From Nitrospira sp. (lineage in GTDB: Bacteria > Nitrospirota > Nitrospiria > Nitrospirales > Nitrospiraceae), in assembly GCA_030123605.1 (NCBI GenBank), contig CP126123.1, positions 4,059,237-4,123,236 of the forward strand: a stretch of DNA of 64,000 nt, written 5' to 3'. The notes below the pieces were generated by a model that was given only the letters and a program-made list of their open reading frames with translations, had not been told where the DNA came from and searched no databases. Position 1 is the stretch's first letter, and each line of letters begins with the position of its first letter. Positions 17,417 through 32,457 of this stretch are shown piece after piece. Made by a program: the position numbers and the translations under genes.

Positions 17417-18406
17417 GTGTCGCGCGAATTGTCTCTCGCCGAAATTTTCCAGTTGGGATATTACTGGGAGACAAAAATTCTTTTGACTGCAGCGAAGTTA
17501 GACGTCTTTTCGGCCCTCGATGGGGATGGTCGTACCACTGCCGAGGCCGCCCAAAAAATCGGCGCCGACGTGCGGGCTTTGGACCTACTCCTCAACGCGT
17601 TGGCGGCGATCAGGCTCCTTACCAAAACAGGCGATGTCTTCGCCAATACCCCTGTGGCCTCGACCTATCTGGTCAAGCATGGGCCGCAGTATATCGGGCA
17701 CCTGCTTCTCTTACACGACGCGGAATGGGATAACTGGGGAAAGTTGGAAGAGTCCATCAAGACCGGCCGGTCTCCCGTTACGCAACATGTCTTTGAAACG
17801 GACCCTGCATTGGGCGCGAACGTGTTGTCCGTGCTGCACCGGATCGGGCAGCAGAGCGGGCCGGATTTGGCCAAGCGGTTGGCACTCGACCAAGCGAGGA
17901 CTCTGCTTGATCTCGGCGGCGGCGCCGGTACGAATGCCATCGCATTCTGTCGGGTCTATTCCCAACTCTCGGCGACGGTGTTCGACCTGGCGACGACCCT
18001 CCCGGTGACGGAACGGACGGTGAAGGAAGCGGGGCTGGAGGCCAGGATCGCCCTGAAGGCCGGGGACTTCAACCGTGACCCGTTGGGCGGGCCTTATGAT
18101 GCGGTGTTGATGTCGGACATCCTGCACTATCAAGATTTAGCGACGAATGCCGCGCTGGTCAAGAAGATCCATGGTCACCTGAATCCCGGTGGACGGTTGA
18201 TCATCAAAGATCGGTTCCTGGACCAGTCGGGTACGAGTCCTGCCTGGACGGCGGCGTTCGCCGTCCATATTTTCGTCAATACGGAACGGGGAGCCTGTTA
18301 CCGCACGGCGGAAGCCATGCAGTGGATGCGGGATGGAGGGTATGTTTCGATCGAAGAAATCGAACGAACGGCCGTAGTTCAAGGTGTCAGGCCGAGCGCC
18401 GGATAG
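17417..18406 (+). CDS. SAM-dependent O-methyltransferase family protein
   Basis: The 329-residue protein starts with GTG. It has an N-terminal winged-helix dimerisation domain (TKILLTAAKLDVFSAL, ALDLLLNALAAIRLL) and a C-terminal class I Rossmann domain with the SAM loop LLDLGGGAGTNAIAF (about residue 163), the acidic segment VFDLATTLP and the catalytic-type region VLMSDILHYQD. This arrangement matches O-methyltransferase family 2, which includes BchU and hydroxyneurosporene methyltransferases. The substrate is unknown. It leads a run of genes (DUF420, PCP_red, membrane protein, bd-like oxidase) with short gaps, so a link to oxidase cofactor or quinone chemistry is possible but unproven. Confidence 0.75.
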   Translation: MSRELSLAEIFQLGYYWETKILLTAAKLDVFSALDGDGRTTAEAAQKIGADVRALDLLLNALAAIRLLTKTGDVFANTPVASTYLVKHGPQYIGHLLLLHDAEWDNWGKLEESIKTGRSPVTQHVFETDPALGANVLSVLHRIGQQSGPDLAKRLALDQARTLLDLGGGAGTNAIAFCRVYSQLSATVFDLATTLPVTERTVKEAGLEARIALKAGDFNRDPLGGPYDAVLMSDILHYQDLATNAALVKKIHGHLNPGGRLIIKDRFLDQSGTSPAWTAAFAVHIFVNTERGACYRTAEAMQWMRDGGYVSIEEIERTAVVQGVRPSAG

Positions 18407-18414
18407 GATGGATC

Positions 18415-19131
18415 ATGTTTGAACTGTTGCGACAGCCGGGATTCTTCGGGACCCATGCGACGTTGGGCGCCGATCTCAGTCAGCTGATGGCCACATTGTT
18501 TACTGGGCTCTTCATCGTCGGCTGGTTTCAGGCGAAACAGCATCGTGGCCATGGCCACCATTGGCTGATGCTGGGTGGCATGATCGCGATGGTGGGGTTT
18601 TTTACCGCCTACTACCTGTTCCGGCAATTGGGGGTACTGGCGGTCGAAGGGAAGGAAGGATTCGGCGGTTCCCAGGCGCTGTACGATTACGTCTTTATCC
18701 CCGTGCTCACCATTCACATCATCCTCGTGATCATCGGGTTGGTGATGGCGGTCTACATGATTGTGTTGGGCTTTCGCTCGCAGCAGTTTGTCGGCGGGGC
18801 GCGGGTGCTCAACGACGCTCAGTTGCAGACGTCATGGAAAAAGGTCGGCTTGATCTTTACCGGTCTCACGGCGATCGTTCTCTTGTTGTTCGGAACGCGC
18901 GTGACGTCGGCCGGATTTTCCATGCGCAAGCTGGAAGTGTATCTCGGGTTTCTCGTTCTGGTGGCGATAGTCTTTGCGGTCGAAATGGGCATTCAGCGTA
19001 TCTGGCCGGACGGCGGCCGGCGCCATCGTGCTCTCGGTCGATTCACGATGGTCGTCTATTGCATCCTGTTTTTGACCGGGACCTTCACATACACGATGTT
19101 GTACGTCTTGTACCCCGGCAAGATCGGGTAG
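18415..19131 (+). CDS. DUF420 (CtaM-like) membrane protein
   Basis: The 238-residue membrane protein begins at the ATG at 18415, preceded by AGGATGG; the longer in-frame start lies inside the methyltransferase gene. Hydrophobic segments include LMATLFTGLFIVGWFQ, LMLGGMIAMVGFFTAYYLF, YVFIPVLTIHIILVIIGLV and LGFLVLVAIVFAVEMG. The pattern with conserved His (HHWLMLGG, TIHIILV) fits DUF420; one member, CtaM of Gram-positive bacteria, is needed for haem-copper oxidase activity. Its position upstream of the bd-like oxidase suggests an oxidase-assembly role, by inference. Confidence 0.7.
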   Translation: MFELLRQPGFFGTHATLGADLSQLMATLFTGLFIVGWFQAKQHRGHGHHWLMLGGMIAMVGFFTAYYLFRQLGVLAVEGKEGFGGSQALYDYVFIPVLTIHIILVIIGLVMAVYMIVLGFRSQQFVGGARVLNDAQLQTSWKKVGLIFTGLTAIVLLLFGTRVTSAGFSMRKLEVYLGFLVLVAIVFAVEMGIQRIWPDGGRRHRALGRFTMVVYCILFLTGTFTYTMLYVLYPGKIG

Positions 19132-19687: not shown

Positions 19688-20773
19688 ATGTTGCATCGAC
19701 TGGCATTACGAGTGCTCCCGAGTTTGACGCTGGCCGTCACGGAAGATTCGGTGCGCAAGCGCAAGCGGCTGGTGATGTTTGTCCCCGGGTTGGTCGCGTT
19801 CGCCTGCTATCGGGCGGCCAAACAGGGGTTTTCGCTGGCGGAGCCGATGACCTTGCTTCTGCTGAGCGGACTGATTGCGATGGTTACGGCTGCCTCTGCC
19901 TATCGCGTGGGTCGTGCCGTACCGTTCGCGCGGCTGATGGGGGCGGACGGGGCTCGGCGCATCGGATGGGTGCTGGTCTGGATCGGCTTCGTCTATGGCA
20001 TTCAACTGTCGTTGCTGGTGCTGGCCCTGTTGTGGTTGGTGGGGTACGACTATGGCGAACATCCCGATGGGCCGGCGATGATGGCGATCATCATTCCCTG
20101 CACGGCGGTCGCGCGCGATGCCTTCGAGATCGGATACCTTCGTCGGCTCGAGCACGGGGGGCGGCCTCTGGTCACCTTTCCCGACGGCGTGGGGCTGCGT
20201 ACATTGTTGCGGCGATTTGATCTGACACTGTTGGGTTGGATCGTCGCAGGGGCGTTCGGTTGCGCGAGTCTGTCGGCGGTGATGGCCGTGGCCGTCACAG
20301 GAAACATGGCGGTGTTGGCGCAGGGTGCGGCAGTGACCATGGCGGCTGGAACGATCGCCCTGTTGGCCTTTTTCGCCGGGCAAGCCGGTGGAGGGGGCTG
20401 GAGGTCACGGATGGCCGAGGCTCGGTGGGGAGAGTTGGCGAAGTTTTGGTGGTGGCCGGGACTGGCCTTCGCCTCGACCTACTATCTGGTGTTGATCGGG
20501 GGCTGCCTCTATGTGTTGAAGCAGCCGTTGCAATCTACGGGGCTCTTCGCCGGCCTCGCCGGGCTGGTCGGAGGCATGATGGCGCTGTATTGCTATTACC
20601 TGGGTCATCGGCGCGATGTCGAGAGCCGAGAGCCGGGAGCAGTGCCGAGCGCCTTGCTGCGTTGCCCCTTCGTGATGGGCATCCTGAGCAAATCTCGCGA
20701 GACCATGTCGGGTGCGGCCTTGCGCGGATCGGTGGTTGGCTTTGAGAAGGACAGTCGGAGAGTGTCGTCATGA
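19688..20773 (+). CDS. Integral membrane protein of unknown function
   Basis: The 361-residue protein has about eight predicted transmembrane segments (for example LLLLSGLIAMVTAASAY, LLVLALLWLVGY, AAGTIALLAFFAG, FASTYYLVLIGGCLYVL). Its stop overlaps the ATG of the bd-like oxidase by 4 nt (ATGA), so it is translationally coupled and probably made in fixed proportion with it. No conserved family is recognised. It could be a subunit or assembly factor of the oxidase, which is inference from coupling only. Confidence 0.65.
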   Translation: MLHRLALRVLPSLTLAVTEDSVRKRKRLVMFVPGLVAFACYRAAKQGFSLAEPMTLLLLSGLIAMVTAASAYRVGRAVPFARLMGADGARRIGWVLVWIGFVYGIQLSLLVLALLWLVGYDYGEHPDGPAMMAIIIPCTAVARDAFEIGYLRRLEHGGRPLVTFPDGVGLRTLLRRFDLTLLGWIVAGAFGCASLSAVMAVAVTGNMAVLAQGAAVTMAAGTIALLAFFAGQAGGGGWRSRMAEARWGELAKFWWWPGLAFASTYYLVLIGGCLYVLKQPLQSTGLFAGLAGLVGGMMALYCYYLGHRRDVESREPGAVPSALLRCPFVMGILSKSRETMSGAALRGSVVGFEKDSRRVSS

Positions 20774-22638
20774 CCACACGCTTTACGTGTCGATTAGTGA
20801 TCACCCTGCTGCTCTGTTGCCTATTGCTGGGCGCCATCGATGCCTTGTTGAGTCCGGAGTTGCTTGAGGCTTCGGATTCTCCCACCGACGTGTATTTTCA
20901 TACGCCCGGAACTCCCACTGGTCCCTCGGCTCCGACGGGGAATGAGAGCCACTATCCGCAAATCGGTTCACTCGACAGTCGATTGCTGATGTGGTTTGTC
21001 ATCCAGCAGCATACCTATTTCGGCGGCTTCGTGCTGGCCTTGCCGATCTTTTGCGTTCTCTTGGAGTTCCTGGGGTTGGCCGCGCGAAACCCTGCGATGG
21101 CGCTGCGGTACGATGGGTTGGCCCAAGACCTGTTGAAGGTGGCGCTGCTGGCGATTTCCGTGACGGCGGCGGTCGGCAGCGTGATGTTGACGATGTTCAT
21201 CACGCTCTATCCCAGTTTTATGCAGTACATGGGAGGGACCTTCAAGGTCATGATGCCCGTTTACGCGCTGGTGTTCGTGGGGACGACGTTCCTCACGATC
21301 GCTTATTACTACAGCTGGGAGCGCATGGCGGCACCGAGCTTGAAATGGGGGCATCTTTCGATCGGCTTGCTCGCGATCCTGTTCGGAACGTCGTTGTTGC
21401 TGCTTGCCAATGCCTGGTCCGCCTTCATGATGGCCCCGTCCGGAGTCGACGGACAAGGGCGATATTTGGGCAATCCGTGGCATCTGTTGCGCTCTGCCCT
21501 CTGGAATCCGTTGAATCTGCATCGGTTCCTGGCAGACATCATGTCTGGCGGCGCGGTGGTGTTGGCCTACGCCTGCTATCGCTTTTTCACCGGCAAGAGC
21601 CAGGAAGAGCGGGCTTATTATGACTGGGTCGGGTATGTGTTCCTGTTCGTCACGGTGTGCGCATTGCTCCCGATGCCCTTTGCCGGCTATTGGTTGATGC
21701 GTTCGGTCTATGCGTACAGCCAAAGCATGGGAGTCACGATGATGGGCGGGTTGTTGACCTGGCTCTTCGTGGTGCAGGCACTCTTGATCGGGGCCTTGTT
21801 TCTCGGCGTGAACTACTACCTCTGGCAGAGCATGGGACGGGTCAGGGGCGGGGAGCGCTATCAGTCCTACTACCAGTATCTACTCTTGGCGCTTACGGGC
21901 TGTCTGTTCATCTGGCTGACCCCGCATACGATTCTCATGACCGGTACGGAAGTGAAGGCCATGGGCGGGGCGCAGCATCCGGTGATCGGCAATTACGGTG
22001 TCATGTCGTCGAAGAACGGGGCGGTGAACGTGATGATCTGCATCACCGCCTTGAGCTACATGTTTTACCGTCGCGCGAATCGTACGATGACGATCTCCTG
22101 GGTCAGGACCGGGAATATCGCGCTGGGGCTGTTGTTCGGCCTGGGGGTGGCCTCCATCATCGGGTTATCGGTGTATGGGTTCTATCTTCCGGCCAGCGAT
22201 CGAGTCGCCCTCTCCGGTCCGCAGGCGATGACGACACTGGTGGTGGTCACGTTGGGGTTGCTGTTGAATCGACGTATGCTGCAAGGCGCGACCATACAGG
22301 GTCCAGTGCAGTGGGGCAGAATTTCGAGCCGCGGCATGGTCGGACTGCTCGGTTTGGCGGCGGCGTTCACCTGGGTGATGGGACTGATGGGCTACATTCG
22401 TTCCTCAGGCCGGCTGGCCTGGCATGTCAACGAGTTGATGCCCGATACTTCTCCATGGGCGTTTACGCCCTCGCTCGGGTTTGCTGCGAAGATGGTGACG
22501 ATCAATATGGTGCTGTTTTGGGGGGCCGTGTTCTTCCTGTTTTGGGTCTGCCAACGTGGACAGCAACCAGTGATGCATGAGGATGTCAGTGCGGAGAAGG
22601 AGGCGGGCTTTTTACCGTCTCCGTCGCATGAGGGGTAG
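20770..22638 (+). CDS. Cytochrome bd-like oxidase, large membrane subunit (paralogue 1)
   Basis: The 622-residue protein has about 14 transmembrane segments after a signal-like N-terminus. The region WFVIQQHTYFGGFVLALP has the early His typical of CydA-like proteins. MGGLLTWLFVVQALLIGA, TPHTILMTGTEVKAMGG, GNYGVMSSKNGAVNV and WVMGLMGYIRSSGRLAWHVNE are shared with the second copy at 26181. Proteins of this type are annotated in Nitrospira as cytochrome bd-like oxidases and have been proposed as an alternative terminal oxidase. It is much longer than CydA and no CydB is adjacent. Electron donor (quinol or cytochrome c) and haem content are not known. Confidence 0.8.
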   Translation: MTTRFTCRLVITLLLCCLLLGAIDALLSPELLEASDSPTDVYFHTPGTPTGPSAPTGNESHYPQIGSLDSRLLMWFVIQQHTYFGGFVLALPIFCVLLEFLGLAARNPAMALRYDGLAQDLLKVALLAISVTAAVGSVMLTMFITLYPSFMQYMGGTFKVMMPVYALVFVGTTFLTIAYYYSWERMAAPSLKWGHLSIGLLAILFGTSLLLLANAWSAFMMAPSGVDGQGRYLGNPWHLLRSALWNPLNLHRFLADIMSGGAVVLAYACYRFFTGKSQEERAYYDWVGYVFLFVTVCALLPMPFAGYWLMRSVYAYSQSMGVTMMGGLLTWLFVVQALLIGALFLGVNYYLWQSMGRVRGGERYQSYYQYLLLALTGCLFIWLTPHTILMTGTEVKAMGGAQHPVIGNYGVMSSKNGAVNVMICITALSYMFYRRANRTMTISWVRTGNIALGLLFGLGVASIIGLSVYGFYLPASDRVALSGPQAMTTLVVVTLGLLLNRRMLQGATIQGPVQWGRISSRGMVGLLGLAAAFTWVMGLMGYIRSSGRLAWHVNELMPDTSPWAFTPSLGFAAKMVTINMVLFWGAVFFLFWVCQRGQQPVMHEDVSAEKEAGFLPSPSHEG

Positions 22639-22678: not shown

Positions 22679-23335
22679 ATGAGGATGATGGTCGGGGCTG
22701 TGTGGTTCATGGGGATGGTGGGACTGAGTACGGTGCCGGGGACGGGCACATCGGCATTTGCCGTAGATAACGGAGTCCTGGTGTTGGAAGACTTTCAGTC
22801 GGCCGATCAAGATGGATTTCCGGTCGATTGGCAACATGAGAATCAGCGCAGCCAGGCCAAAGGTCGGGAGGCTTACAAAATCCAGTCGGAGGACGGGCAG
22901 AAGTTTCTCGCCGCCAAAGATGCGGGGCAGCGTGTGAAAAAGCGTAAGATCGATTGGGATCCGAAGGCCTATCCGGTGTTGACGTGGCGATGGCGCCTGC
23001 ACAAAGCGCCGAACGGGTCGGAGCCAGTCGCCGCTGTGTACGCTTCCTTGGATACGGATTTGCTGTTCATTCCGGTGTTTACCAAATACATCTGGAGCGC
23101 GGGGAAGCCGGAGGGCACGATCGTCGAGGGTGGCATGTTTAGCGGGTCTGAGATCGTTGTGCAAAGCGGTGTGCGTCTCGTGGGGGAATGGGTCGAGGAG
23201 CGGATCAACGTGTACGAAGACTTCAAGCGCCTCCACCAGCATGAGCCGGCGGCAAAGGCCTGGGGGATTTCGTTGTTTGCCGGCCCCGGCGTAGAGATTG
23301 ATTTCGGCGCAATCACGGTGAGTCCGGTTAAATGA
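22679..23335 (+). CDS. DUF3047 family secreted protein
   Basis: The 218-residue protein has an N-terminal export signal (VGAVWFMGMVGLSTVPG...TSAFA). The body matches the DUF3047 pattern: LVLEDFQSADQDGFPVDW, LTWRWRLHKAP, VYASLDTDLLFIPVFTKYIWS, RINVYEDFKRLHQHEP, GISLFAGPGVEIDFGAI. The fold is probably a jelly-roll with unknown ligand. It lies 40 nt after the bd-like oxidase in the same direction. Confidence 0.75.
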   Translation: MRMMVGAVWFMGMVGLSTVPGTGTSAFAVDNGVLVLEDFQSADQDGFPVDWQHENQRSQAKGREAYKIQSEDGQKFLAAKDAGQRVKKRKIDWDPKAYPVLTWRWRLHKAPNGSEPVAAVYASLDTDLLFIPVFTKYIWSAGKPEGTIVEGGMFSGSEIVVQSGVRLVGEWVEERINVYEDFKRLHQHEPAAKAWGISLFAGPGVEIDFGAITVSPVK

Positions 23336-23378: not shown

Positions 23379-23771
23379 ATGAACCGACCATCGCCCAAAG
23401 CTCTGTTTGATGTGATGTTCGGTGTCGTGGTGATGGGCACGGTCGGAGCGCTGATCGGGACAATTCTGGGGGGCTCCTCCGTTCCCATCGCATCCGGATT
23501 GGGGGTGGTGCTGGGGGCGGTGGTCGGCTTTCTCGGCGGGCGTCGCTTCCTCATCAGTATCCTGGTCGGCACGGTCTTGGGCGGGGTATTGGCCTGGTTG
23601 ATTGCGGGAGTTGAAAAGGTTTCTTTCGGGGCGGGAGCCGGTGCGGCCATGGGCGGATTTCTTGGCGTGCAGATTTCGATGTTGTTGGACATTCGGGCGG
23701 CACGAAGAGCGGCAGCTGCGGAAGCCGGTCGCGAAGCCTCTGCGACGCCCTCGACGATTACTAAATCGTGA
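23379..23771 (+). CDS. Small glycine-rich membrane protein (hypothetical)
   Basis: The 130-residue protein has three hydrophobic, glycine-zipper-like segments (GTVGALIGTILGGSSVP, GLGVVLGAVVGFLGGRR, LVGTVLGGVLAWLIAG) followed by GAGAGAAMGGFLGVQ and a charged tail (AARRAAAAEAGREA). Such zippers pack as helical oligomers. No function is assigned. It sits between the DUF3047 gene and the two FGE-like genes. Confidence 0.6.
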   Translation: MNRPSPKALFDVMFGVVVMGTVGALIGTILGGSSVPIASGLGVVLGAVVGFLGGRRFLISILVGTVLGGVLAWLIAGVEKVSFGAGAGAAMGGFLGVQISMLLDIRAARRAAAAEAGREASATPSTITKS

Positions 23772-23786
23772 GATGCGAGTGATCTA

Positions 23787-24701
23787 ATGGAAAACAGAGG
23801 TGTGTTGATCGGGTCCATCATTTTCGTGTTCGCGTCGTTCATTTTGATGATTGCGGCGCTGGTCTATGAATCCTACAAGGCCAAGCAGATGCGTCAATTG
23901 GCGTTATCCATCAAGACCGAGACGAAGGTCGTGGAGGCGGCTGCCGCGCAGGACTTCTCGATGTACAAGACGCTCGTCGGCGACGACGGACGAGAGATGG
24001 TCCAAATATCCGAGGGACCGTTTGTGATGGGCAGTCGTGATAACGACAGCGATCCTGATGAAAAACCTGAACATCAAGTCTACTTGAAGGCATATTTCAT
24101 TGATAAGAATGAAGTCACGCAATACGCCTATGATCGATTCGCCAAGATGACGAAGCGGGGCAAGCGGAGGATCGAGGTCTTTGAGGACGATCCGGCCAAA
24201 TTGCTCAAGCCTGAGTATCCGATGATCGCCGCGACATGGGAAGATGCGGAGGCGTACTGCAAGTGGGCGGGGAAGCGATTGCCGACCGAAGCTGAATGGG
24301 AGAAGGCGGCGCGTGGAGAGGGGAAGCGCCGCTATCCCTGGGGGGACGAGTTCGTGGTGAGTTATGCGAACATCGACGGAAACGAAGATGCCTTTCGGTA
24401 TCTCGCGCCACCGGGGTCGTTCGAATCGGGCCGCAGCCCCTACGGCGTCTACGATATGACGGGCAACGTCGGTGAATGGGTTTCGGATTTCTACGACGAG
24501 AACTACTATCGAAAATCGCCCTATCGAGATCCGAAGGGCCCCGAACAGGGCGATCAACATGTCATTCGTGGCGGGTCATGGCGTGAAACCAAGCGGAATG
24601 TGCGTGCGTCGAAGCGATTTCAGGCGAAGCCATGGCGGCACGATGTGACGGTCGGGTTTCGTTGCGCGAAGGATGTCGATGCCGAAGGGTCGACCAAGTA
24701 G
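23787..24701 (+). CDS. Membrane-anchored formylglycine-generating-enzyme-like protein (1)
   Basis: An N-terminal anchor (LIGSIIFVFASFILMIAALVY) is followed by a SUMF1/FGE-sulfatase domain (MVQISEGPFVMGSRD, YFIDKNEVTQYAYDRF, WEDAEAYCKWAGKRLPTEA, WEKAARG, YGVYDMTGNVGEWVSDFY, HVIRGGSWR, VGFRCAKD). In true formylglycine-generating enzymes the copper-binding Cys pair lies between the RGGSW motif and the final GFRC; here that stretch reads NVRASKRFQAKPW and lacks both cysteines. Sulfatase activation is therefore unlikely. The domain may be structural or regulatory. A similar gene follows at once. Confidence 0.8.
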   Translation: MENRGVLIGSIIFVFASFILMIAALVYESYKAKQMRQLALSIKTETKVVEAAAAQDFSMYKTLVGDDGREMVQISEGPFVMGSRDNDSDPDEKPEHQVYLKAYFIDKNEVTQYAYDRFAKMTKRGKRRIEVFEDDPAKLLKPEYPMIAATWEDAEAYCKWAGKRLPTEAEWEKAARGEGKRRYPWGDEFVVSYANIDGNEDAFRYLAPPGSFESGRSPYGVYDMTGNVGEWVSDFYDENYYRKSPYRDPKGPEQGDQHVIRGGSWRETKRNVRASKRFQAKPWRHDVTVGFRCAKDVDAEGSTK

Positions 24702-24712
24702 TCGGTCGAGCC

Positions 24713-25666
24713 ATGCTCGAAACTAAATTCAAAATCATCTTCCTCGTGGTCGTGCTGCTTGCCGCCGGTATTCCCCTGATTGGGATTCTTCGCGGGACGA
24801 CGTCCACGCCTTTTGAGGTCGAGCCTCGGCATTCAGATGATGGCGCGTCAAGCGACTCGACGGAATCGCCGTCATCTGAAGCGCCGATGACAGAAGACGT
24901 GGTGGTGATTCCTGCAGGTCCTTTTGTGCGCGGGACCGATCGGGGCGGATTTGACGAACGCCCTGAGAGGACCGTGTATCTTGACGGCTTCCTCATCGAT
25001 CGGTACGAAGTCACAAATGCGCAGTATGCCGCATTTGTGAAAGAGACGGGGCACCGAAAAGCCGGTCCTCCTTCACGGTATGCGAAAAACACGTCCCGTA
25101 TGCGAGGGCCGAACCAGCCAGTGGTGTATGTGTCGTGGGAGGACGCGAGCGCATACTGTGCCTGGCGCGGAATGCGATTGCCCTCTGAAGCGGAGTGGGA
25201 GAAGGCCATGCGTGGGACAGACGGGCGTCTGTGGCCTTGGGGGAATGTCGAGATCCCAGACGGGGCGAATTGGGCCAGGGTGGATGATGGGTTCGACGTA
25301 GCTGCTCCAGTAGGCCGTGTGAAGAGCGATACCAGCCCCTATGGAGTGATGGACGGCGCAGGCAATGTCATGGAATGGGTCGATGATTGGTACCTTGAAG
25401 GCGCCTATGCGGAGGCGTCGGAGCGTAATCCTCGCAGTCCTGAGTATGGAACCTATAGAGTTCTGCGAGGAGCGGCATACACCGGCTCAGGGTCGGATTT
25501 GCGGATTACCGCGCGCAGCAAGATGCCATCGGATTTTCGCGACGAGACAATCGGTTTCCGTTGTGCGAAATCCGGTGTGGAAAATGAGGCGTCTCCTGAA
25601 GCGAGGGAGATGGGGAACATTACAAAAAATCGAAGTAGTAGAGGATCAGAAACACGGCCAGAATGA
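24713..25666 (+). CDS. Membrane-anchored formylglycine-generating-enzyme-like protein (2)
   Basis: The start at 24713, 11 nt after the preceding gene, gives an N-terminal anchor (FKIIFLVVVLLAAGIPLIG). An upstream in-frame ATG at 24632 lies inside the previous gene and is rejected. The FGE-like domain has VVVIPAGPFVRGTDRGG, FLIDRYEVTNAQYAAF, WEDASAYCAWRGMRLPSEA, YGVMDGAGNVMEWVDDWY, RVLRGAAYTGSGS and IGFRCAKSG. The catalytic Cys pair is again missing (the stretch reads SDLRITARSKM). The last 16 residues (after MGN) look non-conserved and overlap a small antisense ORF at 25620-25724. Confidence 0.78.
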   Translation: MLETKFKIIFLVVVLLAAGIPLIGILRGTTSTPFEVEPRHSDDGASSDSTESPSSEAPMTEDVVVIPAGPFVRGTDRGGFDERPERTVYLDGFLIDRYEVTNAQYAAFVKETGHRKAGPPSRYAKNTSRMRGPNQPVVYVSWEDASAYCAWRGMRLPSEAEWEKAMRGTDGRLWPWGNVEIPDGANWARVDDGFDVAAPVGRVKSDTSPYGVMDGAGNVMEWVDDWYLEGAYAEASERNPRSPEYGTYRVLRGAAYTGSGSDLRITARSKMPSDFRDETIGFRCAKSGVENEASPEAREMGNITKNRSSRGSETRPE

Positions 25667-25724
25667 TATTGACAACCATTCCAGCCAAAACTATAATGTC
25701 GAACACTTTTGAGTTTTTGGCCAT
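25620..25724 (-). CDS. Small single-pass membrane ORF (34 aa), antisense to the end of the FGE-like gene
   Basis: The frame begins MAKNSKVFDIIVLAG, continues through a strongly hydrophobic stretch and ends LILYYFDFL before TAA. The charged N-terminus and a single helix of about 22 residues fit a bitopic membrane peptide. It overlaps the 3' end of the convergent FGE-like gene by 47 nt. A weak GGGA precedes the ATG. It is divergent from two further small membrane ORFs at 25824 and 25993. Function is unknown; a small oxidase subunit is one possibility. Confidence 0.45.
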   Translation of the reverse strand: MAKNSKVFDIIVLAGMVVNIILAVFLILYYFDFL

Positions 25725-25823
25725 AAAAATCCCGTTTGAAAACATGCGCGTGAGGGATTTTGATTAACATAGAGCGCATGGTGTGTCAATTCAAAATACG
25801 TACTTAAACCGCAGGGGGGCACG

Positions 25824-25940
25824 ATGGAAGCAGCACAGGACGATGTCAAGATTAAAATCGGAAAGATGATTTTTTATATCACCTGTGCAGTGGGCCTGTG
25901 GTTCTTCTATTGGTTCGGTGGAATTCAATGTCCATGCTGA
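25824..25940 (+). CDS. Small single-pass membrane ORF (38 aa) upstream of the bd-like oxidase
   Basis: The frame starts MEAAQDDVKIKIGK and has one membrane helix (MIFYITCAVGLWFFYWF), ending GGIQCPC. A purine-rich AGGGGGG site lies 4 nt before the ATG. The C-terminal Cys-Pro-Cys is notable and could bind metal or form a disulfide. It resembles in size CydX-type small subunits of bd oxidases but is not recognisably homologous. The same-strand neighbours are another 40-aa membrane ORF and the oxidase gene. Confidence 0.6.
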   Translation: MEAAQDDVKIKIGKMIFYITCAVGLWFFYWFGGIQCPC

Positions 25941-25992
25941 TTTTGCGCCTCGACCTTAGGGGGCTGCATACCATGTTGAAGGGAGTTTGAAG

Positions 25993-26115
25993 ATGGGCCA
26001 AACAATCGTCTACCTCGTTGTCTCGATCTTGATCTGCGTTGTGTACTTTACGGCCGTCGATCATCTCTTGATGGACGCCCAGGGGTTGGATTATTGGTAT
26101 CTCTTCCGCAAGTAG
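25993..26115 (+). CDS. Small single-pass membrane ORF (40 aa) directly upstream of the bd-like oxidase
   Basis: The frame starts MGQTIVYLVVSILICVVYF and continues with a polar tail TAVDHLLMDAQGLDYWY ending LFRK. AAGGGAG lies about 8 nt before the ATG. It is 65 nt upstream of the oxidase ATG on the same strand, so co-transcription is likely. The aromatic, acidic tail suggests a peptide that docks on a larger membrane complex. A role as an accessory oxidase subunit is inference from position and topology. Confidence 0.65.
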   Translation: MGQTIVYLVVSILICVVYFTAVDHLLMDAQGLDYWYLFRK

Positions 26116-26180: not shown

Positions 26181-28115
26181 ATGGGTCCGGTAACCCGTAA
26201 CAAGTTGATGCCGATCATGGCGCTTGGCGCAATGGTCGGACTTCTCCTCCTGCCTGTACTTGTTTCGATTCCTGCATTGGCGAGTGGCGGCGGCGAGGCT
26301 CCTGCAGCGTCGGCAGATGCAGGCAAAAAGGAAGGCGGCGGTGAGGCCAAGGTAGAGAAGGGGAAGGATGTGTATTACAAGACGGAGGGTATTGTGTCCG
26401 GCCCTCCTGCTCCGAAGACGACCGATGGAGAAAGGGATTATCCGCGGTACAACTTCGAGAGTCGTGTCCTGCTCTGGTTCGCAAACCAGCAGCACTTGTA
26501 CTACGGTAGTTTCGTTCTTGCCGTTCCGATCTTCTGCATGATTATCGAGTTTATGGGGGTAGTGTCGAAGGATAAGGCGCTGGCCAAGCGCTATGATCAG
26601 TTGGCCTACGACTTTATCAAGATCAGTTTGACGGCCTACTCATTGACCGCCATCTTGGGGGGTATCCTGATCTTCACCTTCCTTACGCTCTATCCCGCTT
26701 TCTTCCAGTACCTCTCCGGAATTTTCAGGCCCGTGATGCATATCTATGCGCTGATGTTTGTCGCGGAAAGTGGAACCCTCTATATCTATTACTACGGCTG
26801 GGACAAGATGAAAGAAGGGTTCCTGAAATGGATCCATCTCAGTATGTCCGTGGTCTTGAACGTCATTGGTACGATTTTGATGTTTTTGGCCAATTCGTGG
26901 ATCGGGTTCATGATGTCTCCTGCCGGAGTCGATGAGCAGGGTCGGTATCTCGGGAACATTTGGCATGTGATCCATACGGCCTTGTGGAATCCGCTGAACG
27001 TGCATCGCATTCTTGGTAACATGGCCTTCGGTGGCGGAGTGGTAGCGGCCTATGCGGCCTATCGTTTCCTGTCTGCGAAGACCGACGAGGAGCGTGCGCA
27101 TTATGACTGGATGGGTTACATCGCAATGGCTCTCGGTGTATCCTTCTTGATTCCGTTGCCGTTCGCCGGTTACTGGCTCATGCGTGAGGTCTACGCCTAT
27201 CGTCAGCAGATGGGCATTACGCTGATGGGCGGATTGCTTGCCTGGCTCTTCATCATCCAGGCAACCATGATCGGAATTCTCTTCCTCAGTACCAATTACT
27301 ATCTCTGGCAGGCGCTCGGGCGCATGCGTGGTGCGGAAAAATATCAACGATACATTAAGTACCTCGTGTTTTTGGTCACCTGCGGATTCTTGGTGTTTAT
27401 TACCCCCCACACGATGGTCATGACACCGGCCGAATTGAAGGCTATGGGTGGACAGCAACATCCCGTGCTTGGAAACTACGGGGTTATGTCAGCCAAAAAC
27501 GGCGGCATCAACGTGATCATAACGACGACGGTCTTGAGCTTCGTGTGGTACATGCGAGGCAATAAGGTGTCGACCGTATCGTGGTCGAAGTTCGGCAATA
27601 TTTTCATGGGCTGTTTCTTTTTCTTCGCCTATGTCAATATTATCTGGCTCGCTGTCTACGGATACTATATCCCTGCCAATGTCCGTGTAGGATTGTCGGT
27701 TCCTCAGGTGGCAACTACTCTCTCGTGTCTTTTCTTCATGTTTGCGCTGAACAGCATCATGATGAAGGGTGCTAAGCAGACTGGGCCGATCGAATGGGGA
27801 AAAATATCGGCGCGGTCGCAATATGCCTTGATCATGTTGGCTACCGCGTTTACGTGGATGATGGGATTGATGGGTTATATCCGCTCTTCGGTTCGTCTCT
27901 TCTGGCACGTCAATGAGATCATGCGGGACAATTCCCCCTGGGCCTACACTCACACGGTTGGATTTGCAGCGAACATGATCTCCTTCAACGTGTTATTTTT
28001 TTGGATCAGCATCATGTTTGTCTTCTGGCTTGGGGCACTTGCTGCCAAGAAGGTTCCTGTAGAAGCTAAGGCGGGGGCCCCTGGAAGAGCGCCGGAGCCA
28101 GCAGCCAGCCATTAA
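26181..28115 (+). CDS. Cytochrome bd-like oxidase, large membrane subunit (paralogue 2)
   Basis: The 644-residue paralogue of the 20770 gene starts after a strong AAGGAGG. An N-terminal signal-like segment (ALGAMVGLLLLPVLVSIPALA) precedes about 14 transmembrane helices. Shared segments include WFANQQHLYYGSFVLAVP, FMMSPAGVDEQGRYLGN, WNPLNVHRILG, PFAGYWLMREVYAYRQQMG, TPHTMVMTPAELKAMGGQQ and MMGLMGYIRSSVRLFWHVNE. Conserved His, Met and Arg positions in these blocks are candidate haem ligands. Downstream genes encode membrane c-type cytochromes and an NxrC-like protein, so electrons could arrive from cytochrome c rather than quinol. That is inference. Codon choice here is richer in A/T at third positions than in the flanking copper block, by eye. 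Confidence 0.8.
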   Translation: MGPVTRNKLMPIMALGAMVGLLLLPVLVSIPALASGGGEAPAASADAGKKEGGGEAKVEKGKDVYYKTEGIVSGPPAPKTTDGERDYPRYNFESRVLLWFANQQHLYYGSFVLAVPIFCMIIEFMGVVSKDKALAKRYDQLAYDFIKISLTAYSLTAILGGILIFTFLTLYPAFFQYLSGIFRPVMHIYALMFVAESGTLYIYYYGWDKMKEGFLKWIHLSMSVVLNVIGTILMFLANSWIGFMMSPAGVDEQGRYLGNIWHVIHTALWNPLNVHRILGNMAFGGGVVAAYAAYRFLSAKTDEERAHYDWMGYIAMALGVSFLIPLPFAGYWLMREVYAYRQQMGITLMGGLLAWLFIIQATMIGILFLSTNYYLWQALGRMRGAEKYQRYIKYLVFLVTCGFLVFITPHTMVMTPAELKAMGGQQHPVLGNYGVMSAKNGGINVIITTTVLSFVWYMRGNKVSTVSWSKFGNIFMGCFFFFAYVNIIWLAVYGYYIPANVRVGLSVPQVATTLSCLFFMFALNSIMMKGAKQTGPIEWGKISARSQYALIMLATAFTWMMGLMGYIRSSVRLFWHVNEIMRDNSPWAYTHTVGFAANMISFNVLFFWISIMFVFWLGALAAKKVPVEAKAGAPGRAPEPAASH

Positions 28116-28208: not shown

Positions 28209-29525
28209 GTGATCGATCTTATTAAAGAGTCCTTATCTATGGGGTGGCCCGCGTTAGGGATCCTTGTGGCCCTTATGTTTTATTTTAAGGCGTCCATCCA
28301 GGATCCTGTTGCCAACAAGCGGGCAGTGTTCAAGACCTTCATCGGGATTCTCGGGGCAATCCTCTTGTTCATGGCTATTGCCAATTACAAGATGAACTTC
28401 TTTGCTGAATCGCGGTTGCTCCCGGTCTCATTGGTCTTGATCACGTCAATGGCCTTCATGATGGCGTTGTATTTTACCAATATCAGCGCCCTGCTGAAGA
28501 TCGGTGGATTCATGTTTTTCATTGCGGCGGCCCTTTCTGGATATGGGAACTGGTTGCCGCAGGTGGAGGGCGGATTTCCTCCTAAGGAGGAGAAAAAGGA
28601 TTTCAGTAACATGCCGGCCAGCGAGCTTGCCGACGAGGGTGAGAAAATCATTTTCGGTGGGGTAGGGCAAAATAAAGTTCAGGGTGCGATCGGGAAAGGA
28701 CAATGTCCTCTCTGTCATGCATTTCATAAGGGAATGTTGGGTGAGCGCGCACCGAACCTCGATGGTCTTCCTGAGCGTGCCGGTAAGGAACGTCTGGAAG
28801 ACCCTCGTTATCACAAGGGAAATCCTGTTGCCCGTGATTCCATTCAAAAGGAAGCCTTCCCTGGTTCTGGAACAGCTGAAAATGCTCAGGAATATATTGC
28901 CGAATCCCATGCCTGCCCGAGTTGCTTTGTCGTGGCGGGTTATGGGGTAAAGGGTACCAACGATAAAGAGAGTCCGATGCCTGCCATTCATAAGCCGCCA
29001 ATCTCTCTCAGCCTTCCTGAATTGGCTGCAGTGGATACCTGGTTCTATGTTCGCGAAGGAAGGGAATCGCCCTCGTTCGATGAAATCGTCAAGTCATACG
29101 AGAAATTCATTCCCGAGTCGGATCGTCCCAAGCCGCCGACAGAGGGAGACGCAAAGCCGGGAGCGAGTGCCTTGATGGCAGACGGAACTGAACCGGTCGA
29201 TCAAATTTTTGCTAAGGCGCAGTGTGTAGCCTGTCATACGATCCCAGGGATAGCTGGAGCGACAGGTACCATCGGTCCTAAGTTGGTGGAAGGAACCAAT
29301 GCTCCCCTTCGCATCAAGGACAAAGAGTACAAGGGCAAAGCCAAGAGTGTTCCCGACTACATCATGGAATCTATCATTGAGCCAAGCGCATACGTCGTAA
29401 AAGGATTCCCGGACAACACCATGCCAAAAGTGTTCGGCCAAAAATTGAGTGCTGGGGCCTTGAAAAAGATTGTCGACTACCTGTCTCAGGTGCAAGAGGG
29501 AAAAGAGCCGCCTAAGGCTTCGTAG
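28209..29525 (+). CDS. Membrane-bound cytochrome c with two CxxCH sites and one CPSCF site
   Basis: The 438-residue protein starts with GTG after GGAGG. The first 120 residues hold about four membrane helices (ALGILVALMFYFKAS, TFIGILGAILLFMAIANY, MAFMMALYFTNISALL, GFMFFIAAALSGYGNW). Three cytochrome-type sites follow: CPLCH (about residue 166), CPSCF (about 238) and CVACH (about 340). The middle site lacks the haem-ligating His. Met ligands are plausible in MPAIHKP and NTMPKVFG. It probably accepts electrons in the periplasm and passes them to the bd-like oxidase encoded upstream. Partner assignment is inferred from gene order. Confidence 0.8.
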   Translation: MIDLIKESLSMGWPALGILVALMFYFKASIQDPVANKRAVFKTFIGILGAILLFMAIANYKMNFFAESRLLPVSLVLITSMAFMMALYFTNISALLKIGGFMFFIAAALSGYGNWLPQVEGGFPPKEEKKDFSNMPASELADEGEKIIFGGVGQNKVQGAIGKGQCPLCHAFHKGMLGERAPNLDGLPERAGKERLEDPRYHKGNPVARDSIQKEAFPGSGTAENAQEYIAESHACPSCFVVAGYGVKGTNDKESPMPAIHKPPISLSLPELAAVDTWFYVREGRESPSFDEIVKSYEKFIPESDRPKPPTEGDAKPGASALMADGTEPVDQIFAKAQCVACHTIPGIAGATGTIGPKLVEGTNAPLRIKDKEYKGKAKSVPDYIMESIIEPSAYVVKGFPDNTMPKVFGQKLSAGALKKIVDYLSQVQEGKEPPKAS

Positions 29526-29585: not shown

Positions 29586-30623
29586 ATGAAAGCACTAATG
29601 TCAGTCGGAGCACTGATTGGTGTGATCGGGCTACTCGTATTGATCGGTATGATCTTCGGAGTAGTTCCATCGAACACCGTCAAGCTCGTTGAAGGCTATA
29701 TGCCTATGCAGATGCTGAGCGAGCTGGCGATTTTTGTTGCCGGCTTCACCGGTATCAGCTACCTGATGAGCTCTATGGGAATGCCGTTACCACGGTTTTG
29801 GCAAGGAGTTTTATTCTGGGTATTCATATGGATGTATCTCAAGTACAGAGTGTATCCCCCGATTCCGTTCAGCGTTCGTGCGATGTACGGGACGGTGACG
29901 TTCGTTGCGGTGTTCATGTGGGTGTCGGCCAATGAGGAAGACTGGAAGAAATTCAAGCAGCCGATCATCAATGTGCTTGATGCGAATACCGGGTTTCAGA
30001 AGGCACTCCGCACGTTGTATCTGGTTCTTCTTCCGATCCTGATCGGAGGATTTTCCTTCCTCTCAATGAAGCCAAGTACGGAAGAACCGATCGAGTTGCG
30101 AACGGTGCATCCTGCTCCGCCGGCTAGCACAAAGGTGCATGGGAAAACCTACACCTTGCAAACGTCTCAAAACCCGTATCGTGTCAATCCTGAAGGCAAG
30201 TACGATCAAGAGTACAGCAACAAGTTGATCGTTGAGCAGGGGATGGGACGTTTGATGGCTCCCAATGCCAATCCTTGGGATGAAAAAGCTGAAGGTTACC
30301 TCAAGTATGTGCGTGAAGGTGGAGAAATATTTTTTCAAAATTGTCATTTCTGCCACGGTGACAACTTGAATGGTCGCGGTCTACACGCCTTCGCGTTCAA
30401 TCCTATTCCCGCAAATTTCACCGACCCTGGAACCATCGCTCAATTGCAGGAGACATTCATTTTTTGGCGCGTGTCCAAGGGTGGAATCGGTTTGCCGAAC
30501 GAAGGTTTTCCATGGGCCTCTGTTATGCCACCTTGGGAGCAGCACTTGACAACGGATGAAATCTGGAAGGTGATCCTGTTCGAGTACTGGCATACTGGAT
30601 ATTACCCTCGCACATGGGATTAA
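29586..30623 (+). CDS. Membrane-anchored monohaem cytochrome c
   Basis: The 345-residue protein has about five N-terminal transmembrane helices (VGALIGVIGLLVLIGMIFG, LSELAIFVAGFTGISYL, FWQGVLFWVFIWMYL, YGTVTFVAVFMWV, LYLVLLPILIGGFSFL). A C-terminal periplasmic cytochrome c domain carries CHFCHG (about residue 257) and a possible Met ligand in VMPPWEQHL. The ATG follows AAGGGAGAT. Together with the previous gene it forms a two-cytochrome module downstream of the oxidase. No close named family is recognised. Confidence 0.78.
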   Translation: MKALMSVGALIGVIGLLVLIGMIFGVVPSNTVKLVEGYMPMQMLSELAIFVAGFTGISYLMSSMGMPLPRFWQGVLFWVFIWMYLKYRVYPPIPFSVRAMYGTVTFVAVFMWVSANEEDWKKFKQPIINVLDANTGFQKALRTLYLVLLPILIGGFSFLSMKPSTEEPIELRTVHPAPPASTKVHGKTYTLQTSQNPYRVNPEGKYDQEYSNKLIVEQGMGRLMAPNANPWDEKAEGYLKYVREGGEIFFQNCHFCHGDNLNGRGLHAFAFNPIPANFTDPGTIAQLQETFIFWRVSKGGIGLPNEGFPWASVMPPWEQHLTTDEIWKVILFEYWHTGYYPRTWD

Positions 30624-30672
30624 TCTGGAATATCTTTCAAACAACCTGGGAGAACAGGTGGTGAGGTTAACA

Positions 30673-32457
30673 ATGAGCAAACTTCGTACGAACGTAAAGC
30701 CGACGCTGGCCATCGGTGCGGCGTTAGGCGCCATTCTCTTCTCTGGAAGCATGATCAGTATCGGACATGCTGCAGATCTTCCGGAAGGGTTTGTAAAGGG
30801 GGAATTGGCACCGGCTCCTCCTGCCGAGATGATCGAAGCTGGGAAGCGTGTGTATTTTACCAAGTGTGTGTGGTGTCATGGCGTTGACGGTGCCGGTGAT
30901 GGACCTGGTGCAGATCGTTTGTGGCCAAGGCCTAGGAACTTCAACCAAGGAACATTCAAAATTCGTCATACGGCGAGTGGTGAATTACCGCTTTTCAATT
31001 ACAATGAAAAGGTGCCGGATTCCAATAAGAATGACCTGTTGGATACAGTGACTCACGGTCTTCCCGGTTCAGCTATGCCTCCTTGGGAAGGTATTTTAAC
31101 TGAAGAGCAGCGGCTGCAAGTCTTGTCGTTCGTGACTACCCAACTGGTAAAGGATCGCAAGTTTACCGACAAGCAGTCTGAGACGCAGACCGTTCTTCAA
31201 GTTGGTACCATCAAGCCTCTCGAAGCAACCGAGGAAAGCCTGAAGAAGGGTGCTGAACTCATTGTCGAGAAGAAGTGCATTGAATGCCACGGTGTTGAGG
31301 GGCGTGGAGACGGTAACGCCTTCAATTTGAAGGATGACTGGGGGTTCTCCATTCAACCTGCAGATTGGCACAAGTGTTGGAATTTCCGTGGCAGCCGTCA
31401 AGATCCGTATAATGTGCGGAACATTTTCCGTACCTTTTCCACTGGGGTGAACGGGACACCGATGCCCTCGTTCGCCGACAATACGACAGTTGAGGAACGA
31501 TGGCACATTGCCAATTTCGTCAATTCTCTTTGTGAACGCGATACCGAGGGTAAGCCTCTCGGTATTGATCCTTTGACCGACAAGCCGAAAATCAACTTCG
31601 TTGTTCCTTCCTCTCCGGTCGAAGGAGAGATCTCAGATGATCCTGAAAACGAGATGTGGAAGAAGCAGGGGCGTCGTTATGTGGCGATGGGAGGACAAAT
31701 CACCCACAAGCCACGGAACTTTGTCAATCGGATCGACGACATTTGGGTGAAGTCGTTGTACAACGAGAAAAATGTTGTATACCTCATCCAATGGGACGAT
31801 CGAACCAAGAGTGTGGCGGAGGGCAAACTTCCCTGGGCTCCGACCCAAGTGAATGTCGAAAACTTCGGTGTGAAGGAACAGGCTCCGAAAACCGGTGAGG
31901 AAGGTTCGATCGCTGCCGCACAGAACAACTATGCCGTCTATAACGATGCGATCGGATTTCAATTCCCGATCAAGTGGCAGGAGATTCCTGCCCCTTTCAA
32001 GCCGCGTTATCTGTTCGGCGATGCAAAGTTCAACGCCGACATTCTGAAGTGGGAAGCGGATGGATCGCTACGGTCCTTTAAAGGGACTGGATGGGATCAG
32101 GACTTCGAAGAGCGCGATGATTTTGAAGAGAAAGTCAAGCTCATGAAGTCGGAATGGAAGAATGGTCGGTGGACCGTCATGATCTCACGTCCCCTCAAGG
32201 GTGACAAAGACGATTACGACGAATACACCAGGTTCGATGTCGGCAAGTACATTCCGATGGTGTTCTTCGCTTGGGATGGGCATAACGGGGATGCGGGTCG
32301 TAAGATGGCCGTTTCAGCTTTCTACTATACGATTCTTGAGCCCCCTACTCCTCAGGAAGTGTATATCTACCCGGCCATTATCGCGGTTGGCGTGGTGATC
32401 CTTGAAGGGTGGATGCTCACCCGCCGTGCCAACAAGAAAAAGGGGAAGTCTCTGTAA
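30673..32457 (+). CDS. Dihaem cytochrome c fused to an NxrC-like (ethylbenzene-dehydrogenase gamma-type) domain
   Basis: The 594-residue protein has a signal peptide (TLAIGAALGAILFSGS...GHA). Two cytochrome c domains carry CVWCHG (about residue 61) and CIECHG (about 203). A C-terminal haem-b-binding EB_dh-like domain (KPRNFVNRIDDIWVKSLY, VVYLIQWDDRTKS, PMVFFAWDGHNGDAGRK) follows, and a final transmembrane helix (IYPAIIAVGVVILEGWML) anchors it. EB_dh domains form the gamma subunit of DMSO-reductase-family complexes such as nitrite oxidoreductase. The fusion would pass electrons from a b-haem through two c-haems. The start at 30673 follows GTGAGG; an earlier GTG at 30658 is weaker. Confidence 0.82.
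   Translation: MSKLRTNVKPTLAIGAALGAILFSGSMISIGHAADLPEGFVKGELAPAPPAEMIEAGKRVYFTKCVWCHGVDGAGDGPGADRLWPRPRNFNQGTFKIRHTASGELPLFNYNEKVPDSNKNDLLDTVTHGLPGSAMPPWEGILTEEQRLQVLSFVTTQLVKDRKFTDKQSETQTVLQVGTIKPLEATEESLKKGAELIVEKKCIECHGVEGRGDGNAFNLKDDWGFSIQPADWHKCWNFRGSRQDPYNVRNIFRTFSTGVNGTPMPSFADNTTVEERWHIANFVNSLCERDTEGKPLGIDPLTDKPKINFVVPSSPVEGEISDDPENEMWKKQGRRYVAMGGQITHKPRNFVNRIDDIWVKSLYNEKNVVYLIQWDDRTKSVAEGKLPWAPTQVNVENFGVKEQAPKTGEEGSIAAAQNNYAVYNDAIGFQFPIKWQEIPAPFKPRYLFGDAKFNADILKWEADGSLRSFKGTGWDQDFEERDDFEEKVKLMKSEWKNGRWTVMISRPLKGDKDDYDEYTRFDVGKYIPMVFFAWDGHNGDAGRKMAVSAFYYTILEPPTPQEVYIYPAIIAVGVVILEGWMLTRRANKKKGKSL

What the first reader, a model, noticed from the sequence alone, without database searches (positions are those of the whole stretch)
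25824..26115. Two tiny single-pass membrane ORFs ahead of the second bd-like oxidase
Frames of 38 and 40 codons each have a ribosome site and one helix, in the position where accessory subunits such as CydX occur in other oxidases. The first ends in Cys-Pro-Cys. They may be undescribed subunits of the bd-like oxidase.
Basis: partly seen in the sequence, partly recalled or inferred. Interest (0 to 1): 0.65.

Follow-up and report, generated by a model that had tools for sequence, protein, structure and literature searches.

The report
Conserved tiny membrane proteins beside bd-like oxidase
Next to an enigmatic oxygen-reductase-like enzyme in a Nitrospira-type nitrifying bacterium lie not two but three real, highly conserved genes for 34-40-residue membrane proteins that match no family in the libraries searched and are probably overlooked small subunits or assembly helpers of that enzyme complex.

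Summary
Both frames (25824-25940, 38 aa, ending Cys-Pro-Cys; 25993-26115, 40 aa) are real genes: codon-level pN/pS is 0.09 and 0.24, against about 1-2 in shifted or antisense frames. ORF1 and ORF2 sit directly upstream of the bd-like oxidase in 86 of 90 distinct close orthologue sequences, 21 of 22 at 75-85% identity and 13 of 15 at 60-75%. Each exception is a contig edge, a paralogue or a Nitrospinota genome. They are absent upstream of the sister paralogue in the same genomes. In another class of the phylum all three precede the oxidase on one strand. In Nitrospinota the trio exists intact but elsewhere, beside a DUF420 (CtaM-type) gene. Anammox bacteria have the oxidase module but no detectable trio. 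Pfam, NCBIfam and PDB give no family or solved structure. Best reading: small single-helix subunits, or less likely assembly factors, of the oxidase/cytochrome c/alternative-NxrC membrane complex, CydX-like in kind but not in sequence. No physical association has been shown. The Cys-Pro-Cys end is lineage-restricted, so a metal-binding role is speculative.

The parts
25824..25940 (+). ORF1: 38-aa single-pass membrane protein; basic N-terminus, C-terminal Cys-Pro-Cys
   Evidence: conserved upstream of bdB orthologues, pN/pS 0.089; CPC invariant in Nitrospirales families f1-f3
25993..26115 (+). ORF2: 40-aa single-pass membrane protein (two-helix 67-70 aa forms in some genera); C-terminal motif M..QGLD[YF][WF]Y
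   Evidence: pN/pS 0.239; Tyr18, Met27, Gln30, Leu32 invariant across two phyla in the aligned set
25620..25724 (-).
   Evidence: most conserved of the three, pN/pS 0.050; on the same strand as ORF1/ORF2 in locus L282
25725..25823 (.). Intergenic region between the divergent ORF3 and ORF1 with strongly conserved blocks (GTGAGGGATTTTGATTAAC, GTGTCAATT.AAAATACG.A.TTAAA); probable promoter/regulatory region (inference)
   Evidence: alignment of 14 loci of the family
25814..25819 (+). Ribosome-binding site of ORF1 (GGGGGG)
   Evidence: purine-rich sites precede nearly all homologues
25980..25985 (+). Ribosome-binding site of ORF2 (AGGGAG)
26181..28115 (+). bdB: bd-like oxidase, CydA-related, 644 aa; the enzyme the trio is linked to
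   Evidence: Pfam Cyt_bd_oxida_I 1.6e-19; orthologues across Nitrospirota, Nitrospinota, anammox
28209..29525 (+). cytc1: membrane c-type cytochrome of the same module
   Evidence: Cytochrom_C; synteny
29586..30623 (+). cytc2: membrane c-type cytochrome of the same module
   Evidence: Cytochrome_CBB3; synteny
30658..32457 (+). Alternative NxrC-like protein (two cytochrome c domains plus EB_dh heme-b domain); matches description of alt_NxrC_2
   Evidence: synteny; literature PMC6606698
18322..19131 (+). DUF420 (CtaM/YozB family) membrane protein; its Nitrospinota orthologue lies directly beside the trio
   Evidence: PF04238; 47-49% identity to three of the four Nitrospinota proteins, 41% to the fourth
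20770..22638 (+). bdA: sister bd-like paralogue in the same locus; no trio upstream of it (negative control)

Best explanation
The three tiny proteins are undescribed single-helix components of the membrane complex formed by the bd-like oxidase bdB, two membrane c-type cytochromes and an alternative NxrC-like heme protein. Shown: they are real proteins under strong purifying selection, and they are gene-linked specifically to bdB orthologues, not to its paralogue. Inferred: each inserts N-terminus-in/C-terminus-out and packs its helix against bdB or the cytochrome anchors, stabilising assembly and heme sites as CydX does for E. coli cytochrome bd. The conserved extramembrane tails (ORF1 Cys-Pro-Cys; ORF2 QGLDYWYLFR) would face the periplasm, where electrons arrive from cytochrome c or nitrite oxidoreductase.
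For: Purifying selection on all three. ORF1 and ORF2 upstream of bdB in 86/90, 21/22 and 13/15 distinct orthologue sequences at 85-100, 75-85 and 60-75% identity, and in none of the bdA-type paralogue loci of the same genomes. The misses are contig edges (L286/L241, L287/L242), one paralogue (L075) and Nitrospinota. Order FGE, ORF3, ORF1, ORF2, bdB, cytc1, cytc2, altNxrC largely kept across class Nitrospiria. In another class (L282) all three lie on one strand directly before bdB. In 395 Nitrospirota genomes 150 of the 153 with ORF1 also have a bdB-family hit at E<=1e-150; of the other three, G427's bdB is masked and G446 ends at a contig edge. Precedent: CydX/CydS and CydH/CydY are 3-4 kDa single-helix subunits of cytochrome bd, CydX needed for assembly and activity (PMC8951039).
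Against: In four Nitrospinota genomes the trio lies away from bdB, beside a DUF420 gene. Anammox bdB modules have no detectable trio. Unlinked second copies of ORF1 alone exist in five genomes. No structure, proteomic or interaction data. Gene linkage does not prove a physical subunit.
Confidence: 0.66

Rival explanations
1. The trio, with the DUF420 protein, is an assembly/maturation module (cofactor, possibly copper or heme, insertion) for this or another terminal oxidase and not a set of permanent subunits.
For: In Nitrospinota the trio is adjacent to DUF420, and an orthologue (41-49% identity) lies 7 kb upstream of the trio in the window. DUF420/CtaM is needed late in aa3/caa3 oxidase assembly, possibly for CuB (PMC9145763). 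Both the trio and DUF420 were undetected in the two anammox genomes searched for both. The C-terminal CXC of ORF1 recalls the CXC copper motif of Cox11_CtaG (PMC9145763).
Against: DUF420 is not adjacent to the trio in the Nitrospirota loci mapped, whereas bdB is. The ORF1 metal-ligand end is not universal: Cys in f1-f3, His in most other Nitrospirota lineages, neither in f6 and Nitrospinota. None has a soluble chaperone domain.
Confidence: 0.22
2. The trio belongs to a different membrane complex (for example the aerobic OR-N2-type terminal oxidase or a complex III) and is only co-located with bdB.
For: Separate locus in Nitrospinota; orphan ORF1 copies; absence from anaerobic anammox bacteria that do have bdB.
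Against: Adjacency to bdB from class Nitrospiria to two genomes of other classes (bdB about 50% identical; L282, L284) with no trio before paralogues.
Confidence: 0.1
3. The frames are non-coding or chance ORFs in a conserved regulatory leader.
For: Very short; the region between ORF3 and ORF1 is itself conserved DNA.
Against: Third-codon-position variation and pN/pS far below 1 only in the proposed frames; protein-level conservation across two phyla.
Confidence: 0.02

Closest known systems
CydX / CydS / AppX (small subunit of cytochrome bd oxidases)
   Same: About 4 kDa, one helix, encoded beside a CydA-type gene; C-terminus predicted periplasmic; needed for assembly in E. coli (PMC8951039, PMC5322542)
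   Different: No sequence match to any Pfam/NCBIfam model; upstream rather than downstream of the oxidase; three proteins; no CydB in this module; ORF1 ends CPC
CydH / CydY
   Same: Second roughly 3 kDa single-helix subunit of E. coli bd-I; its gene is not in the oxidase operon (compare Nitrospinota)
   Different: No detectable sequence relation; orthologues of the trio are mostly linked to the oxidase gene
bd-like_3 cluster of Nitrospira moscoviensis (bd-like oxidase, two cyt c, alt_NxrC_2)
   Same: Same gene module as in this window by content (PMC6606698)
   Different: The passages of the main text read here mention no small proteins; its supplements were not readable here
Cox11_CtaG and CtaM (DUF420) oxidase assembly factors
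   Same: Single-helix protein with outward CXC (Cox11); DUF420 neighbour in Nitrospinota and within the window locus
   Different: ORF1 has no soluble domain and its CXC is lineage-restricted

Membership tests
CydX-type small subunit of cytochrome bd | Sequence match to a CydX/DUF2474-type family model | tested here: not met
   no such family at E<=0.1 for any of 21 members each of ORF1 and ORF2
CydX-type small subunit of cytochrome bd | Under about 60 aa with a single hydrophobic helix | tested here: met
   (38 and 40 aa, one hydrophobic segment; ORF2 has two helices in some genera)
CydX-type small subunit of cytochrome bd | Gene linked to a CydA-type oxidase gene | tested here: met
   not met in Nitrospinota
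CydX-type small subunit of cytochrome bd | Physically bound to CydA and required for assembly or heme sites | not testable with these tools
   no interaction or mutant data
Cytochrome bd subunit I superfamily (bdB) | Cyt_bd_oxida_I domain | tested here: met
   PF01654, 1.6e-19, 70.2 bits against cut-off 26.2
OR-N type CydA (bdB) | Placement in the OR-N clade of the published CydA tree | tested here: inconclusive
   groups bdB with the Nitrospinota orthologue; the reference tree paper (PMC8630170) is not held
CXC copper chaperones (Cox11_CtaG) | Conserved CXC plus periplasmic copper-binding domain | tested here: not met
   no domain; CXC absent outside Nitrospirales families f1-f3

The most novel reading that the evidence does not exclude
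ORF1 carries a periplasmic metal site (Cys-Pro-Cys in Nitrospirales families f1-f3, His in most other lineages) that supplies or relays copper or electrons to the bd-like enzyme, and the trio plus DUF420 defines a previously unknown small-subunit/maturation module of the OR-N class of oxygen reductases.
Probability: 0.12. Interest if true: 0.82.

Novelty: new variant of a known kind. Interest (0 to 1): 0.6.

Why it matters
The bd-like oxidase/cytochrome/alternative-NxrC cluster is among the 40 most transcribed genes of N. moscoviensis and is thought central to nitrite oxidation, yet its composition and function are unknown (PMC6606698). Three conserved tiny proteins are concrete candidates for missing parts. 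Leaving them out of annotations, proteomic databases or heterologous expression constructs could explain a failure to reconstitute such enzymes, as CydX is needed for stable cytochrome bd. They also give sequence tags (ORF1 CPC, ORF2 QGLD, ORF3) for finding this complex in metagenomes.

Tried and rejected
(1) That the two-helix insertion of anammox bdB (about 65 aa) is a fused ORF2: a by-eye pattern (Tyr/Asn/Gln spacing) was not supported; the ORF2 profile scores negative on anammox bdB and the Gln is not conserved there. (2) Mini-ORFs in anammox intergenic gaps: nothing conserved. (3) A universal metal-ligand C-terminus of ORF1: fails in f6 and Nitrospinota. (4) A 1,926-aa open frame in L121: an artefact of masked bases. 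(5) Pfam hints FixP_N (ORF1, 0.0056) and COX4_pro_2 (ORF3, 0.099): not significant. (6) PDB: no relative of any of the three; only a weak cytochrome bd match for bdB. (8) The genome-contig scan used a Kuenenia-type cytochrome (PDB 6h5l) only to reach anammox and Nitrospinota genomes; its own loci do not contain the module.

Full report
WHAT IS THERE. The window lies in a 4.3-Mb single-contig genome. ORF1 (25824-25940, 38 aa, ending CPC) and ORF2 (25993-26115, 40 aa) are present as described, each with a purine-rich ribosome site and one hydrophobic helix. They precede bdB (26181-28115), a CydA-related bd-like oxidase (Pfam Cyt_bd_oxida_I 1.6e-19). Two membrane c-type cytochromes and a diheme/heme-b protein follow it. 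That content matches the bd-like_3/alt_NxrC_2 cluster described for N. moscoviensis (PMC6606698).

THEY ARE REAL GENES. From loci across the family and beyond I compared distinct DNA versions of the core of each frame (94, 94 and 83). pN/pS is 0.089 for ORF1, 0.239 for ORF2 and 0.050 for ORF3. Read in shifted or antisense frames, the same DNA gives 0.97-3.07. Start codons are preceded by purine-rich sites in most homologues of ORF1 and ORF2.

THEY ARE LINKED TO THIS OXIDASE. bdB-type genes were found in 174 of 175 genomes of the family. Among distinct loci with enough upstream sequence, ORF1 and ORF2 lie upstream on the same strand in 86/90 (bdB 85-100% identical), 21/22 (75-85%) and 13/15 (60-75%). 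The misses are two genomes whose contigs end inside bdB (each counted twice as L286/L241 and L287/L242), one diverged bdB paralogue (L075) and two Nitrospinota. None of the bdA-type paralogue loci in the same genomes has them, which is a useful internal negative control. Across 395 Nitrospirota genomes, ORF1 is detected in 153 and a bdB-family hit (E<=1e-150, which includes some paralogue-only genomes) in 169, with 150 in common. Of the three ORF1-only genomes, G427 has its bdB masked, G446 ends at the contig edge, and G206 has no bdB. Several genomes that scored negative for ORF1 were inspected and carry diverged forms in the same position (L271-L280; ORF1 itself was not recognised in L277 and L278, where ORF2 and ORF3 were). 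The order FGE, ORF3, ORF1, ORF2, bdB, cytc1, cytc2, altNxrC is largely kept, although in some orders ORF3 lies between the two FGE genes. In a genome of another class (L282) ORF3, ORF1 and ORF2 lie on one strand directly before bdB, and L284 has ORF1 and ORF2 there.

OUTSIDE THE PHYLUM. Nitrospinota and anammox Planctomycetota have the bdB-cytc1-cytc2-altNxrC module (bdB about 60% and 41-47% identical) but no trio next to it. Profiles extended with outgroup sequences found the trio in all four Nitrospinota genomes tested with a bdB orthologue, with the same ORF3/ORF1/ORF2 layout at a separate locus. Its neighbour there is a DUF420 membrane protein. The window has a DUF420 orthologue at 18322-19131, 7 kb upstream of the trio (47-49% identity to three of the four, 41% to L211). 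DUF420/CtaM is required late in heme-copper oxidase assembly in Bacillus and Staphylococcus (PMC9145763). The four anammox genomes tested gave no credible trio hit, and the two tested for DUF420 had none. So the trio is a cassette of its own: tightly linked to bdB in Nitrospirota, unlinked in Nitrospinota, and so far only in lineages I take to be aerobic.

SEQUENCE FEATURES. ORF1 keeps WFFYWF in most lineages. Its end is CPC in Nitrospirales families f1-f3, His-bearing in most other Nitrospirota lineages (VVHH, ALYH, APHHGG, PGFTH), and without Cys or His in family f6 (FWFGTL, FWLGNI) and Nitrospinota (ASVWR). ORF2 keeps Tyr18, Met27, Gln30 and Leu32, and in some genera has an extra N-terminal helix (67-70 aa). 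Basic residues at the N-termini of ORF1 and ORF3, and the basic loop between the two helices of long ORF2, suggest N-in/C-out for all three (positive-inside rule; inference). No Pfam or NCBIfam family and no PDB sequence matches any of them. The 99 bp between ORF3 and ORF1 contains blocks nearly invariant among 14 loci, probably a promoter region (inference).

INTERPRETATION. The closest functional precedent is CydX/CydS and CydH/CydY, single-helix 3-4 kDa subunits of cytochrome bd; CydX is needed for assembly and activity (PMC8951039). The trio works best as an analogue of these, but is not a member: the sequence test fails and physical binding is untested. The main rival is an assembly module with DUF420, for which the Nitrospinota arrangement is the best evidence. 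I put subunits at about two in three and assembly factors at about one in five. The metal-site idea for ORF1 is attractive because a CXC at the outer face recalls Cox11_CtaG, but it is not universal and stays speculative.

LIMITS. The phylum survey is one draw of 395 genomes with no names. Assemblies are often fragmented. Very diverged short proteins can escape profiles, so absence in anammox is provisional. OR-N subtype of bdB was not settled because the reference tree paper was not available. No structure prediction was run.

Noticed in passing
L106:3957-4148, L107:5677-5922, L108:5641-5838, L109:6054-6311, L110:5957-6256: Second, unlinked copies of ORF1 with longer N-termini but the same ...WFFYWxNGIQCPC end, in unrelated contexts (for example beside sensor-kinase/response-regulator or FKBP-like genes) in five genomes.
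   Followed up: partly
L202, L203, L205, L207, L208 (anammox bdB, about 700-725 aa): Anammox homologues of bdB carry a roughly 65-residue insertion with two extra hydrophobic helices that Nitrospirota and Nitrospinota forms lack; not detectably related to ORF2.
   Followed up: partly
window 23787-25666: Two FGE-sulfatase-domain proteins with N-terminal hydrophobic segments are part of the conserved locus upstream of the trio; why formylglycine-enzyme-like proteins travel with an oxidase cluster is unexplained.
   Followed up: no
window 22679-23335 and 23379-23771: A DUF3047 protein and an unassigned 130-aa protein are conserved in the same order between bdA and the FGE genes in Nitrospirales.
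   Followed up: no
L056-L061, L065-L069: ORF2 is a two-helix protein (67-74 aa; 97 aa in L066) in several genera, so the 40-aa form in the window is probably a shortened version or the long one an extension.
   Followed up: partly
L210:7176-9776: Nitrospinota trio loci also carry a HmuY-like protein and two uncharacterised conserved proteins (194 and 316 aa in L210) upstream of DUF420.
   Followed up: no
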